A stretch of DNA of 64,000 nt, from positions 3,720,001 through 3,784,000 of the forward strand of contig NZ_CP032489.1 of NCBI RefSeq assembly GCF_003600625.1, in the 5' to 3' direction. Positions 59,878-64,000 of this stretch are shown here, piece by piece; position 1 is the first letter of the stretch; each line of letters opens with the position of its first letter. The DNA comes from Arachidicoccus soli (GTDB taxonomy: Bacteria; Bacteroidota; Bacteroidia; Chitinophagales; Chitinophagaceae). Made by a program: the position numbers and the translations under genes. The notes beneath the pieces are model-generated. The model was given only the letters and a program-made list of their open reading frames with translations. It had not been told where the DNA came from and made no database searches.

Positions 59878-61029
59878 TTAATCATCGGCATTATTTACCA
59901 AATATTGCAGCAATAAGACATCATTATAAGCAGGGCAGTAATAATAATATAGTAAAGCACCCATTTTGTAAGATATCTTTTTGAAGAAGTCGGGAAAATA
60001 AGATGCAATATTTCCAATTACAAAAGGAAAGTCATTTTCTTCAATCTTATTTTGAACTTCTTCCTGAGAGGGCAGGTTCTGTATACTTAGTTTTTCTCCC
60101 AAACCATTTAAGGCATTGGCCACAATTATTTTTTCAAAAATATTTTTTGAATGATTAAATATAAATTGTCCCTCTTTAATCAGATTTGGTTTTAAAACTT
60201 CTAATGCCGGAATCTTTTTCACCTGCATCAATCTTGAAAAATGATATAATAAAATTGCTGTTTTTCCATAATTGGGTGCAATATCTAAAGGTTTGTTTAT
60301 ATAATCTTTATTTTTTATTGATTGTACGATGAGTTGCAAAGAAGCAGAATCCACCTTTGTCCAAGGTAAATTATAAGTCTGTACAAAAGTTAAGATATTT
60401 GTTAATACAGCTACATCAAAACTCACATGAAACTTCTTACCGAACCAAGTAGAATAAGCATAGTATTTCCTATATTTTTTATCTACAGAATTAATTTTCC
60501 CATTAGGCCGATGAATATAATGCTGCATTATCAGATGTAATTTTTCCAAAGAGTCATCAGGCCAGGCCAATTGCTTAAGGGATGTGTCATCCAAGTCATC
60601 GGGAACACTACCATCATTTTTTATCAACGGAATCCACCAAGAAATAGGAAAGCGATAAACAGAATCCCTTAACCAAAAGTTATAACTCCCTCTTTCCACA
60701 TTTTTAAACCGATGATAAATTAGAAGCGATCGAGCTAACAGGGTATCTACCAAAACTTGTTGCCGGGCATTTAAGTTTGGTCTTATTTTCTTTAAAGTGG
60801 CATCAATAACAATATTATAAAAGATATTGATGTCCCCACGTTTTGTTTTAAATTTCTGGTGACTGCTAATATAAGCAGGATAGCTACCAGTTAAGAAAAA
60901 TGGATCATTTTTCGTTTGTAATTGTTCTATTCTGTTTAGTAGAAAGCTTATATCAATTTTTGAACCTTGCGCATTGGCTATTAGCAATACAATGCAACCT
61001 AGTATTGCTAGGGTTATTTTTTTTATCAT
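59878..61029 (-). CDS. secreted hypothetical protein with DLDDTS motif
   Basis: This 383-residue protein has a signal peptide ending IANAQ. The mature part is mainly alpha-helical. At residues 144-150 it has DDLDDTS, which matches the DxDD(T/S) acid motif of class II terpene cyclases, and nearby GSYNFWLRD and PISWWIPL. A periplasmic terpene cyclase is not expected, so an alpha/alpha-toroid enzyme of another kind is more likely. I do not recognise a named family. The insertion sequence begins 47 bases upstream of its start, and before insertion it probably followed the MFS gene in one operon. Confidence 0.7.
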   Translation of the reverse strand: MIKKITLAILGCIVLLIANAQGSKIDISFLLNRIEQLQTKNDPFFLTGSYPAYISSHQKFKTKRGDINIFYNIVIDATLKKIRPNLNARQQVLVDTLLARSLLIYHRFKNVERGSYNFWLRDSVYRFPISWWIPLIKNDGSVPDDLDDTSLKQLAWPDDSLEKLHLIMQHYIHRPNGKINSVDKKYRKYYAYSTWFGKKFHVSFDVAVLTNILTFVQTYNLPWTKVDSASLQLIVQSIKNKDYINKPLDIAPNYGKTAILLYHFSRLMQVKKIPALEVLKPNLIKEGQFIFNHSKNIFEKIIVANALNGLGEKLSIQNLPSQEEVQNKIEENDFPFVIGNIASYFPDFFKKISYKMGALLYYYYCPAYNDVLLLQYLVNNADD

Positions 61030-61076
61030 TGATGCAGTTTAGACGTATAATATGAGATCCCTAATTAAAAAATAGT

Positions 61077-61091
61077 TTAACCCACATTGCA
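61077..61091 (+). repeat. left terminal inverted repeat of the IS
   Basis: TTAACCCACATTGCA is the exact reverse complement of the right end at 63148-63162. It begins 47 bases upstream of the start of the DLDDTS gene. Confidence 0.88.
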
Positions 61092-61208
61092 GGCTAACAA
61101 ATGTTATCATGTTAAAAAGGTCGTTGATTTAGTTAAATATTAATTATATAATTATTTCAATAATTCGTAAATATATTATTATCAATATGTATAAAATTGA
61201 AAATCCGT

Positions 61209-61219
61209 TGTAGTCCCAC
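61209..61219 (+). repeat. internal direct repeat of the IS, copy 1
   Basis: TGTAGTCCCAC lies about 130 bases inside the left end. The same 11-mer, in the same orientation, lies near the 3' end of the transposase gene at 63079-63089. It may be a protein-binding site or a remnant of recombination. Confidence 0.6.
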
Positions 61220-61264
61220 AGGGTTCAGTGTATTTTTAGTGCTGGGTAGCCTATCTTCGTATGG

Positions 61265-63145
61265 ATGTTTTTAAAGATCGCTTATAAACGAATAAGAGCA
61301 ACCGGAGAGGAAGAAAAAACTTACCGGTTAGTGGAGAGCTATCGTTATATGGACCGTGTTCGTCATGAAATAATTTTACATCTGGGAAAGCTGGAAGAAT
61401 TAGAAACACCTGAGCAAAAAAGGGACATGGCTATACGTATCAATACGCTGATGCGACAGTATCATCGTAAGGAGCTTGATTTGTTTAAGCATGAAGATCC
61501 ACAAGTAGAAATATTAGCCCAGAAATTTTTCAAAGAGATCCTTGAAAAGCAGCGTGTAGACACAGCTTCAGGCAAGTCTCGTCTGGTCATAGACGAGCAC
61601 AGTGTCAAAAACAAGGATGTTCGGGAAGTAGGCACAGAATGGCTGTGTAAGCAGGCCTTGGATCAGCTAGGGCTTTGCTCTTTCTTACAACATCAAGGGT
61701 GGGAGGAAGAAAAAATACAATTGGCTTATACACATATCATCAGCCGGTGCGCTTATCCTGCATCCGAACTGAGGACCAGCGAATGGATCCGGCAGAACTC
61801 CTCCATTTGCGAGGTCACAGGTTATCCCATAAGTAAAGTCACCAAGGATAAGCTATACCACATTACCAAGGAGCTTTACAACATTAAAGAAGCCCTGGAA
61901 AAGCACCTAAGTTATCGCACCAGTGAGCTTTTTGATCTGGAGGATGAAATCATCCTTTATGACCTAACGAACACGTATTATGAGGGCGCCATGCGCAGTA
62001 GCCAATTGGCTAAATTTGGGCGTAGTAAAGAAAAGCGCAGTGATGCCAAATTGGTGGTATTGGCATTGGTCGTGAACCTGGAAGGTTTCGTCAAATACTC
62101 TCAGATCTTTGAAGGCAATATGGCAGATAGCACCAGCCTGCAGAAGTTAATAGAGGACTTATCCCTCAGGACGTCTTCTGCGCAGCGAAAACCCACGATC
62201 GTCATGGACGCCGGGATCGCTACTCAAAAGAACCTGGAACTTCTTAAGAGCAAAAAGTTTGAATATATGTGCGTAGCAAGATCTAGCCTGAATAAATACA
62301 CTATAGATACAGATAGTGATCCTGTTAAGATAGCGGACAAAAAAGGCCAACCCTTGACCCTGCAAAAAGTAAAAGTAGAGGGCAATACGGACACCTGGCT
62401 TCTTGTACATAGTGAAGCAAAGGCAGTGAAGGAATCCGGCATGAACAGTCGTTTCAGTCAGCGCTATGAACAAGGCCTGGAAAATATAAGGGCTAGCCTG
62501 ACAAAGAAAAGTGGTGTCAAGAAACAGGAAAAGGTCAGTGAGCGGATAGGGCGGCTTAAAGCCAAATATCCAAGCATGAATAGATATTACGATATCCAAC
62601 TAGCTATTGACGAAAATGGTATCGTAACGGAACTTACCTGGCAACAAAAGCCTGTGGAGAAAAAAGAGGGCCATTACCTGTTACGAACAACGCTTGATGA
62701 AAAACAGGAAGCCACGCAGTGGGCAGTGTATAATGCTATAAGGAACATTGAAGGCTCATTTCGTTGTTTGAAAAACGATCTGGATCTAAGACCCATCTTT
62801 CATAAAACAGATGAAGCCTCTATGGCACACCTGCATCTGGGTATCTTGGCTTACTGGACCGTTAATACACTCAGATATCAGCTTAAAGCGAAAGGCATCC
62901 AAAATGAATGGACCGACATCAGAAGAATTATGGATACCCAAAAACTGGTGACCACTACCATGGTCGATCAGTATGATCAGTTGATTACCATACGCCAATG
63001 TAGTGAACCGGAGGCTAAGGTTATGGAGATTTATACCGCATTAAATTACAAGCTCCAACCGTTCACTCGCAAAAAATCTGTAGTCCCACTTTCTGAAAAT
63101 CAAAAAATTGAAACGCCTGCTACTAGGGCTAAACGATCGGGTTAA
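61265..63145 (+). CDS. IS1634-family transposase
   Basis: This 626-residue protein matches IS1634-family transposases of the IS4-type DDE group. The N-terminal region (ETYRLVESYR-type KTYRLVESYRYMDRVRHEII, then LHLGKLEELET) is typical. The DDE domain includes LYDLTNTYYEGA (first Asp), PTIVMDAGIATQKN (second Asp) and NIEGSFRCLKNDLDLRPIFH (Glu), followed by HLHLGILAYWTVN. The frame is intact, so the element may be active. It lies on the plus strand, opposite to both flanking host genes. Confidence 0.93.
   Translation: MFLKIAYKRIRATGEEEKTYRLVESYRYMDRVRHEIILHLGKLEELETPEQKRDMAIRINTLMRQYHRKELDLFKHEDPQVEILAQKFFKEILEKQRVDTASGKSRLVIDEHSVKNKDVREVGTEWLCKQALDQLGLCSFLQHQGWEEEKIQLAYTHIISRCAYPASELRTSEWIRQNSSICEVTGYPISKVTKDKLYHITKELYNIKEALEKHLSYRTSELFDLEDEIILYDLTNTYYEGAMRSSQLAKFGRSKEKRSDAKLVVLALVVNLEGFVKYSQIFEGNMADSTSLQKLIEDLSLRTSSAQRKPTIVMDAGIATQKNLELLKSKKFEYMCVARSSLNKYTIDTDSDPVKIADKKGQPLTLQKVKVEGNTDTWLLVHSEAKAVKESGMNSRFSQRYEQGLENIRASLTKKSGVKKQEKVSERIGRLKAKYPSMNRYYDIQLAIDENGIVTELTWQQKPVEKKEGHYLLRTTLDEKQEATQWAVYNAIRNIEGSFRCLKNDLDLRPIFHKTDEASMAHLHLGILAYWTVNTLRYQLKAKGIQNEWTDIRRIMDTQKLVTTTMVDQYDQLITIRQCSEPEAKVMEIYTALNYKLQPFTRKKSVVPLSENQKIETPATRAKRSG
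63079..63089 (+). repeat. internal direct repeat of the IS, copy 2
   Basis: TGTAGTCCCAC, identical to 61209-61219, lies inside the transposase C-terminal coding region (KSVVPLSENQ). Its distance from the right end is about 75 bases. Confidence 0.6.
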
Positions 63146-63147
63146 GT

Positions 63148-63162
63148 TGCAATGTGGGTTAA
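63148..63162 (-). repeat. right terminal inverted repeat of the IS
   Basis: TGCAATGTGGGTTAA is the reverse complement of the left end. The final TTAA contains the TAA stop codon of the MFS gene on the minus strand. Confidence 0.88.
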
Positions 63163-64000
63163 TAAGTCTGTTCATCAAAAGCAATCTGAATTTTCTCCAT
63201 TTTTTTCTTATTTGTGATAAATCGGCTTCGCCATGCAACTATGGCTGATAATAATGTCATAAAGATTAATAAAGATAGGGCTTTAGAAAGATTGGTTTTT
63301 TCTGCGATAAAACCAATAACGGATGGGCCTGTAAGAAAGCCGATCAATCCTCCTGTGGTCACCATTGCAAATCCTTCTACAGTACTTATACCCGGAATAT
63401 GCGCCGAAGCTCTAAACAACACCGGTACAATACAACAACAACCTAGTCCAATCAAAATATACCCTGCAATAACAATCGGTATTAACCAAGCAGTCACAAC
63501 AGTTAAGAATCCTGTCGCAGCAATCAGACAACCGGTAATGACCACTTTTTTGCTGCCAAACCGACCGACTAAACTATCACCATTGAGTCGCCCAAAAGTC
63601 ATAGCAAAAGAAAATCCTGCATAACCTAAACTTATCATTGCCTTTGGCGCATGCATTGTTTCTTTCAAATAAATAGCACTCCAATCGGCAACGCAGCCTT
63701 CAGCCATATAACTTACTAAACAAATAAATGCAATCCCCAATATCCCTAAAGAAGGTAACTTAAAAGATGATCTGGAGTGAATAATTTCTTTATTGCCCAA
63801 TAAATAATTTCTATTAGCATAATTAACAGTAACAATTGCGGCAACTATAATGACTATTTGCCAGCCTGAAGGTACATGAATTGAAAACCAGAAAGCAGCA
63901 AGAATTGCACTTACACCACCCCCTAAACTATACATACTGTGGCAAGTACTCATCATGAGCCGATTGTATTTCTTTTCCATATTGTTGACAGTGGCATTGA
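63159..64000 (-). CDS. MFS transporter, partial (5' end outside window)
   Basis: The frame has no start inside the window: codons upstream of 63980 read NATVNN into MEKKYNRLMMSTCHSMYSLGG, a conserved loop of sugar-permease-like MFS proteins. About 280 residues covering the second half are visible, with six or more membrane segments and the loop GRLNGDSLVGRFGSKKVV. The family resembles YbjJ or fucose-permease-like MFS. The substrate is unknown. The TAA stop lies in the TTAA at the end of the insertion sequence; the protein end FDEQTY seems native. Confidence 0.88.
   Translation of the reverse strand, partial: NATVNNMEKKYNRLMMSTCHSMYSLGGGVSAILAAFWFSIHVPSGWQIVIIVAAIVTVNYANRNYLLGNKEIIHSRSSFKLPSLGILGIAFICLVSYMAEGCVADWSAIYLKETMHAPKAMISLGYAGFSFAMTFGRLNGDSLVGRFGSKKVVITGCLIAATGFLTVVTAWLIPIVIAGYILIGLGCCCIVPVLFRASAHIPGISTVEGFAMVTTGGLIGFLTGPSVIGFIAEKTNLSKALSLLIFMTLLSAIVAWRSRFITNKKKMEKIQIAFDEQTY

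What the first reader, a model, noticed from the sequence alone, without database searches (positions are those of the whole stretch)
61030..63170. IS1634-like element inserted exactly at the stop codon of an MFS gene, splitting an apparent two-gene operon
The element has perfect 15-bp ends. The right end contains the TAA stop of the MFS gene. Removing the element and one TTAA joins GAACAGACTTATTAA to ACTATTTTT and leaves 47 bases between the MFS stop and the start of the DLDDTS protein gene on the same strand, a normal operon gap. The transposase runs opposite to both genes, so the DLDDTS gene may have lost its promoter or gained one from the IS.
Basis: partly seen in the sequence, partly recalled or inferred. 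Interest (0 to 1): 0.6.

Follow-up and report, generated by a model that had tools for sequence, protein, structure and literature searches.

The report
TTAA-targeting insertion sequence beside transporter gene
A bacterial jumping gene landed on a TTAA that holds a transporter gene's stop codon; its relatives, mostly in Bacteroidota, also sit on TTAA with CCC ends, as the animal transposon piggyBac does, although its enzyme is of another family.

Summary
The insertion is real: a 2,078-bp IS (61081-63158) with a 626-aa IS1634-type transposase between two TTAA, one carrying the MFS stop codon. Four near-identical copies exist in this genome. The "15-bp ends" are an 11-bp perfect terminal repeat plus a 4-bp target duplication. 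The operon reading is only partly right: 4 of 5 congeners have a SurA-like gene directly upstream of the DLDDTS gene, and the MFS gene is found in none of 5, so the MFS-DLDDTS pair was at most lineage-specific.

What stands out is the target. Of 35 related elements with both ends, 30 have TTAA on both sides and one TGAA on both, against 0.83% TTAA in their surroundings. Rejoining with one TTAA restores an acetyltransferase and a sorting-domain protein across the junction. Published IS1634 duplications are 5-6 bp or long and variable (PMC2266710). TTAA plus CCC ends recalls piggyBac, yet the predicted fold is nearest Tn5. I call it a TTAA-targeting subgroup within the IS1634 family. Seamless excision is inferred, not shown; ISfinder could not be consulted.

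The parts
61081..63158 (+). insertion sequence proper, 2,078 bp, CCC...GGG ends
   Evidence: four copies share exactly these boundaries
61077..61080 (.). left TTAA, target-site duplication
   Evidence: 30 of 35 related elements TTAA/TTAA, one TGAA/TGAA
63159..63162 (.). right TTAA, target-site duplication; carries the TAA stop of the MFS gene on the minus strand
61081..61091 (+). left terminal inverted repeat CCCACATTGCA
63148..63158 (-). right terminal inverted repeat CCCACATTGCA
61265..63145 (+). transposase, 626 aa, IS1634 family by model, candidate DDE residues D233/D315/E496
63159..63998 (-). MFS transporter gene, 3' part; whole gene 401 aa, runs past the window end
   Evidence: PF07690; full ORF in L030; no match in 5 of 5 congeners
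59878..61029 (-). DLDDTS protein gene, 383 aa, open, no Pfam family
   Evidence: matches in 13 of 59 genomes, the own one included
61030..61076 (-). 47-base gap that separated the MFS stop from the DLDDTS start before insertion

Best explanation
A recently moved IS of a subgroup of the IS1634 family found mostly in Bacteroidota. Its transposase joins CCC...GGG ends to a TTAA target with a 4-nt stagger, so the element ends up between two TTAA copies (4-bp duplication: supported by sequence). The reaction is probably Tn5-like DDE cut-and-paste (inferred from the fold). Because the target is a self-complementary TTAA, insertion at the T-TAA end of the MFS gene rebuilt its stop codon and left the protein unchanged. 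The cost falls on spacing: the DLDDTS gene, which in related species follows a SurA-like gene, is now 2.1 kb from any upstream same-strand gene. The MFS gene was there before the IS, since the split TTAA holds its stop (inferred).
For: Family: NF033559 254 bits; 29 of 29 aligned transposases, window included, match it. Target: 35 elements with both ends, 30 TTAA/TTAA, one TGAA/TGAA, three with one altered side (TTAA/TTAG, TTAG/TTAA, CTAA/TTAA), one cut by a contig end; the flank was not part of the pattern used to find ends. No direct repeat of 3-9 bp outside the 4 bp in the 31 with flank on both sides. Eleven further loci with one end show TTAA. Background TTAA 1,074 of 129,316 positions. TGAA/TGAA is a direct repeat, not an inverted one, so the 4 bp are target. 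Rejoining with one TTAA opens a GNAT gene (FR47 match 139-220, junction at 146) and a T9SS-tail protein (Por_Secre_tail 80-150, junction at 88), and also a Crp/Fnr-like ORF and a small ORF. The published family end C-----YT (PMC2266710 Table 1, passage) fits an element starting at CCC. A pattern-free search for inverted repeats gave ends with CCC[A/G]NNTT as best repeat in 27 of 40 loci and second best in one. Recent: 0 differences to copy L002. Fold: Tn5 Z 16.6, 342 residues, 5.7 A.
Against: TTAA is palindromic, so only TGAA/TGAA proves direct repetition by itself, and three elements have unequal flanks. Of 26 elements with enough flank, 13 gave an open frame of 60 aa or more across the join; the longest frame fits a 4-bp duplication (modulo 3) in 6, other lengths in 7: not decisive by itself. 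In the frames of other lengths or doubtful ones that I tested (7 proteins), no Pfam domain spans the junction convincingly: in L184 a trypsin-like domain and in L186 a DUF3843 domain begin truncated at or just after the junction, so the two flanks seem to come from different genes there and those loci are not simple insertions. The Crp/Fnr junction (residue 49) lies just before the Pfam domain (53-139), and the small ORF has no family. No strain with the empty site was found. No transposition was observed.
Confidence: 0.86

Rival explanations
1. TTAA is the end of the element itself (TTAACCCA...), and it inserts without duplicating its target.
For: TTAA is nearly invariant next to the repeat and palindromic; a recognition end would look the same. 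Three elements have one altered side, as a mutable end could have.
Against: TGAA/TGAA in L044 is a direct repeat; a GNAT and a T9SS-tail gene come back in frame across a Pfam domain only if one TTAA (or a length equal to it modulo 3) is kept; the published family end consensus fits a start at CCC (PMC2266710).
Confidence: 0.09
2. One reading: an ancestral MFS-DLDDTS operon was split, and silencing or re-promoting DLDDTS is the main consequence.
For: 47-nt same-strand gap before insertion; the IS separates the genes by 2 kb.
Against: No MFS match in 5 of 5 congeners; SurA-like gene upstream of DLDDTS in 4 of 5.
Confidence: 0.15
3. The subgroup is a bacterial branch of piggyBac/IS1380 that the family models label IS1634.
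For: TTAA plus CCC ends; an IS1380 model reaches 29 of 29 members weakly (best E 3.6e-11); PF13701, DDE group 1, reaches 19 of 29; piggyBac is the next fold group after Tn5 (Z 10.2, 320 residues, 6.7 A).
Against: IS1634 254 bits against IS1380 23.6 bits (cutoff 180) for the window protein; an IS4 model reaches 28 of 29 about as weakly; the piggyBac Pfam family did not appear for the window protein at E<=1; Tn5 Z is 6 higher.
Confidence: 0.07

Closest known systems
IS1634 family (IS1549, IS1634, ISPfe2, ISGka5)
   Same: Transposase model, single long ORF, end pattern C-----YT, long spacer between second D and E (D233, D315, E496).
   Different: 4-bp TTAA duplication instead of 5-6 bp AT-rich or long variable ones (PMC2266710 passages; ISPfe2 6 bp, PMC3281130 passages; ISGka5 6 bp, PMC8024623 passages). 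Length 2,024-2,235 bp in 35 elements against 1,500-2,000.
piggyBac
   Same: TTAA target, 4-bp duplication, CCC at the transposon ends (PMC7351741 and PMC10140906 passages; the latter reports many bee elements with CAC and some without TTAA).
   Different: Bacterial; transposase of another family, nearest in fold to Tn5; seamless excision untested.
Tn5/IS50 (IS4 family)
   Same: Best fold match of the predicted transposase.
   Different: IS50 subgroup duplicates 8-9 bp (PMC2266710 Table 1); 10-12% identity; strict YREK spacing not kept here.

Membership tests
IS1634 family | transposase matches the family model above its cutoff | tested here: met
   254.4 bits against 100; 29 of 29 aligned members, window included, match at E<=0.1
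IS1634 family | DDE triad with a long N3-C1 spacer | tested here: met
   D233, D315, E496 invariant in 29 sequences; assigned by motif, not by experiment
IS1634 family | ends C-----YT | tested here: met
   pattern-free repeat search: 28 loci, and own copies, against Table 1 of PMC2266710. The 70 of 70 ends were found with a CCC..TTG pattern and prove nothing here.
IS1634 family | 5-6 bp AT-rich target duplication (typical; two members of the family are known to deviate) | tested here: not met
   4 bp, TTAA/TTAA in 30 of 35. Filed by its transposase only, as a variant.
IS1634 family | strict Y(2)R(3)E(6)K motif lacking | tested here: met
   window protein reads Y489-N-A-I-R493-N-I-E496...K503, i.e. 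Y(3)R(2)E(6)K
piggyBac | TTAA target with 4-bp duplication | tested here: met
piggyBac | CCC at the transposon ends | tested here: met
   the piggyBac end is as given in PMC7351741
piggyBac | piggyBac-type transposase domain | tested here: not met
   window protein has only PF01609 at E<=1
piggyBac | hairpin intermediate and seamless excision | not testable with these tools
   needs biochemistry or excision assays
IS1380 family | transposase above the family cutoff | tested here: not met
   23.6 bits against 180 for the window protein

The most novel reading that the evidence does not exclude
Bacteroidota carry a bacterial counterpart of piggyBac: a Tn5-like transposase that independently evolved TTAA targeting with CCC ends, and that, as in piggyBac, forms 4-nt TTAA hairpins and leaves no scar on excision.
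Probability: 0.3. Interest if true: 0.72.

Novelty: new variant of a known kind. Interest (0 to 1): 0.45.

Why it matters
The piggyBac structure paper says that, although the reaction pathway is shared with IS4-type elements, only piggyBac precisely targets TTAA (PMC7351741 introduction, passage seen). A bacterial subgroup with the same target and the same CCC ends on a different transposase would test whether TTAA targeting and scarless excision are linked. It could also offer a compact TTAA-specific tool for Bacteroidota. The insertion at the MFS stop itself is an ordinary, probably near-neutral event.

Tried and rejected
Stop-codon targeting: rejected, 1 of 4 own-genome copies. Conserved MFS-DLDDTS operon: rejected. 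A duplication outside TTAA: none of 3-9 bp in the 31 of 35 that could be tested. Short derivatives of the IS: of 19 exact CCCAMMTTGCA sites in the genome 14 are paired IS ends; the 5 singles lack TTAA next to them. Distant IS1634-like elements as controls: 3 copies in G214 (30% identity) and 3 in G317 (31%) show no TTAA at their ends. Flanks of two G214 copies read by my eye as 4-bp AAAT and AATT, the third does not match exactly; in G317 I saw no duplication. Ends of other distant hits were not resolved. Homologues for the empty site: congeners have no match to the split GNAT half; the split small ORF has only weak ones; neither gave an orthologous empty site. Outward promoter at the IS end: no TTTG/TAnnTTTG match (motif recalled). 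Sigma-70-like hits (11 found, 6.0 expected) and terminator-like hits (6 found, 2.2 expected, one at 61097-61077) were not used. Structure of the DLDDTS protein from one sequence: pLDDT 39, discarded. Sequence searches of the PDB with the transposase profiles: nothing. First genome-contig scan with the single protein: no relatives.

Literature: none of the papers listed (one search listed 20 of 36) reports, by title, abstract start or the passages I saw, TTAA duplications for IS1634 elements. In PMC2266710 'TTAA' occurs 0 times in the main text. ISfinder could not be searched, so such elements may already be listed there. Five papers were seen as passages, the others as listings.

Rows left out: of 49 loci, 40 were examined for ends (L199-L207, weak partial hits, dropped). 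Of these 40, 28 had both ends, 11 one end, 1 none. For L043 and L044 the right ends were put in by hand. In L182 and L193 a second, inner pattern match was ignored. Not in the counts: L214 (TTAA on both sides), L228 (left TTAA) with L232 (TTAG read toward its end), L235 (left TTAA) and L234 (38% identity, no such end beside the match).

Full report
Observation. The element described is there. The IS proper runs from 61081 to 63158 (2,078 bp), with an 11-bp perfect terminal repeat CCCACATTGCA that extends to 18 bp with 3 mismatches. TTAA lies at 61077-61080 and 63159-63162. The MFS gene, read on the minus strand, ends ACT TAT TAA, so its stop codon sits in the right TTAA. The transposase ORF is 61265-63145, 626 aa, opposite to both genes.

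Copies. The window is part of a 4.1-Mb single-contig genome that holds four full copies. They differ by 0 to 7 bases; the window copy is identical to copy L002 and differs by one base from L003. All four are flanked by TTAA. A second IS is present in three copies with ends CCCAACTTGCA; its transposase is 50% identical to the first.

Operon context. The DLDDTS protein has matches in 13 of 59 genomes, the own one and all five congeners among them. In four of the five congeners (G001-G004) the ORF directly upstream on the same strand is a homologue of the SurA-like gene L030_8, itself preceded by infB. In G005 the upstream ORF is a divergent uppS-like gene. purL lies downstream on the same strand in all five, with two ORFs between in G002 (ORFs of 90 aa or more; gene names by look, not from a family search). 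In the window genome the order is infB, SurA-like, MFS, IS, DLDDTS. The MFS gene has no match in 5 of 5 congeners. In a sample of 295 class members its best match outside the own genome is 61% identical, in one genome of the family with different neighbours; the next is 33%. So the MFS gene is a later arrival at this locus, and no ancestral two-gene MFS-DLDDTS operon is supported. The IS may have cut DLDDTS off from transcription of the upstream genes; this was not tested.

Target. I collected relatives of the transposase from public genomes (49 loci) and looked for ends in 40. With the seven own-genome elements, 35 elements had both ends: TTAA/TTAA in 30, TGAA/TGAA in one (L044), TTAA/TTAG, TTAG/TTAA and CTAA/TTAA in one each, and one cut at a contig end. 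In the 31 that have flank beyond these 4 bp on both sides there is no adjacent direct repeat of 3-9 bp. Eleven loci with a single end show TTAA. TTAA makes up 0.83% of positions in the flanks of the same loci, and no strong consensus is seen beyond it. The ends were located with a pattern CCC[AG]NNTTG, so their uniformity is by construction; but a pattern-free search for inverted repeats gave the same ends as best repeat in 27 of the 40 loci and as second best in L187. The TTAA next to them was in no pattern.

Target or element end? TTAA is its own reverse complement, so equality of flanks cannot decide. Three facts favour target. TGAA on both sides of L044 is a direct, not an inverted, repeat. 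Rejoining flanks with one TTAA restores an open acetyltransferase whose FR47 domain spans the junction (L002) and a secreted protein whose type IX sorting domain spans the junction (L168); a Crp/Fnr-like ORF (L045) and a small ORF (L004) agree but are weaker. The published end consensus of the family, C-----YT, fits an element that starts at CCC (PMC2266710 Table 1, passage). Against: three unequal flank pairs; and in the plain open-frame test 13 of 26 elements gave a frame of 60 aa or more across the join, whose longest version fits a 4-bp duplication (modulo 3) in 6 and other lengths in 7. I tested seven of these further frames with Pfam: five have no domain; in L184 (trypsin-like) and L186 (DUF3843) the domain starts truncated at or just after the junction. 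There the flanks seem to come from two different genes, so these loci are not simple insertions and speak neither way.

Family. The window transposase scores 254 bits against the IS1634 model (cutoff 100) and 24 against IS1380 (cutoff 180); 29 of 29 aligned transposases, window included, match IS1634, and weakly also IS1380 (29 of 29) and IS4 (28 of 29). D233, D315 and E496 are invariant. An AlphaFold model from 29 sequences (mean pLDDT 78.9) matches Tn5 best (Foldseek E 1.3e-8; Z 16.6 over 342 residues at 5.7 A), then piggyBac (Z 10.2 over 320 residues at 6.7 A), piggyBat (Z 8.6) and ISCth4 (Z 8.3). Published IS1634 elements give 5-6 bp AT-rich duplications, with IS1549 and IS1634 giving long variable ones (PMC2266710); ISPfe2 and ISGka5 give 6 bp (PMC3281130; PMC8024623). 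More distant IS1634-like elements in two genomes of the phylum, three copies each, do not have TTAA. So TTAA looks like a property of this subgroup (42-66% identity to the window element in the 40 loci), not of the family.

Mechanism. Shown by sequence: the 4-bp TTAA duplication and CCC ends. Inferred: cut-and-paste DDE transposition of the Tn5 type with a 4-nt stagger. Speculative: because TTAA is self-complementary, excision could be scarless as in piggyBac, where a TTAA hairpin links target choice and clean excision (PMC7351741 passages). That paper states that only piggyBac precisely targets TTAA although the pathway is shared with IS4-type elements; the subgroup here challenges this if confirmed at the bench.

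Verdict. The event at the MFS stop is ordinary. The TTAA subgroup is a new variant of a known kind as far as the searches of the held literature show; ISfinder could not be consulted.

Noticed in passing
59878-61029 (-): The DLDDTS protein belongs to a family whose D-x-D-D motif is invariant in 15 of 15 aligned members and for which Pfam gave only stray weak hits. A profile of the family weakly matches AstC structures 22ty/22tz (E 0.0024 and 0.009), but outside the DxDD motif. AstC is recalled as a terpene cyclase, and DxDD as the class II terpene cyclase motif; both are leads only.
   Followed up: partly
L004 (own genome C1 3390614-3392700): This IS copy differs from the window copy by six bases, all within 108 bp near its left end; five lie in the non-coding leader and one in the first codons of the transposase ORF (element offsets 94-161 and 201; ORF starts at offset 184). 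Gene conversion from a diverged copy is one possible cause.
   Followed up: no
L043, L044, L045 (own genome C1 about 1886182, 1279319, 588007): A second TTAA-type IS in three copies, transposase 50% identical to the first; L044 has TGAA on both sides and L045 splits a Crp/Fnr-like ORF.
   Followed up: yes
L184 and L186: The IS is flanked by truncated pieces of different genes on its two sides (trypsin-like domain, DUF3843), as after a deletion or recombination next to the IS; L184 also has unequal TTAG/TTAA flanks.
   Followed up: no
L187: The TTAA-type IS lies between inverted copies of at least 40 bp identical sequence about 2.5 kb apart, which read as part of another transposase-like frame.
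   Followed up: no
L171, L175, L183: Copies in contigs titled Geobacteraceae, Parachlamydiaceae and Atribacteria MAGs, outside Bacteroidota: transfer between phyla or binning errors.
   Followed up: no
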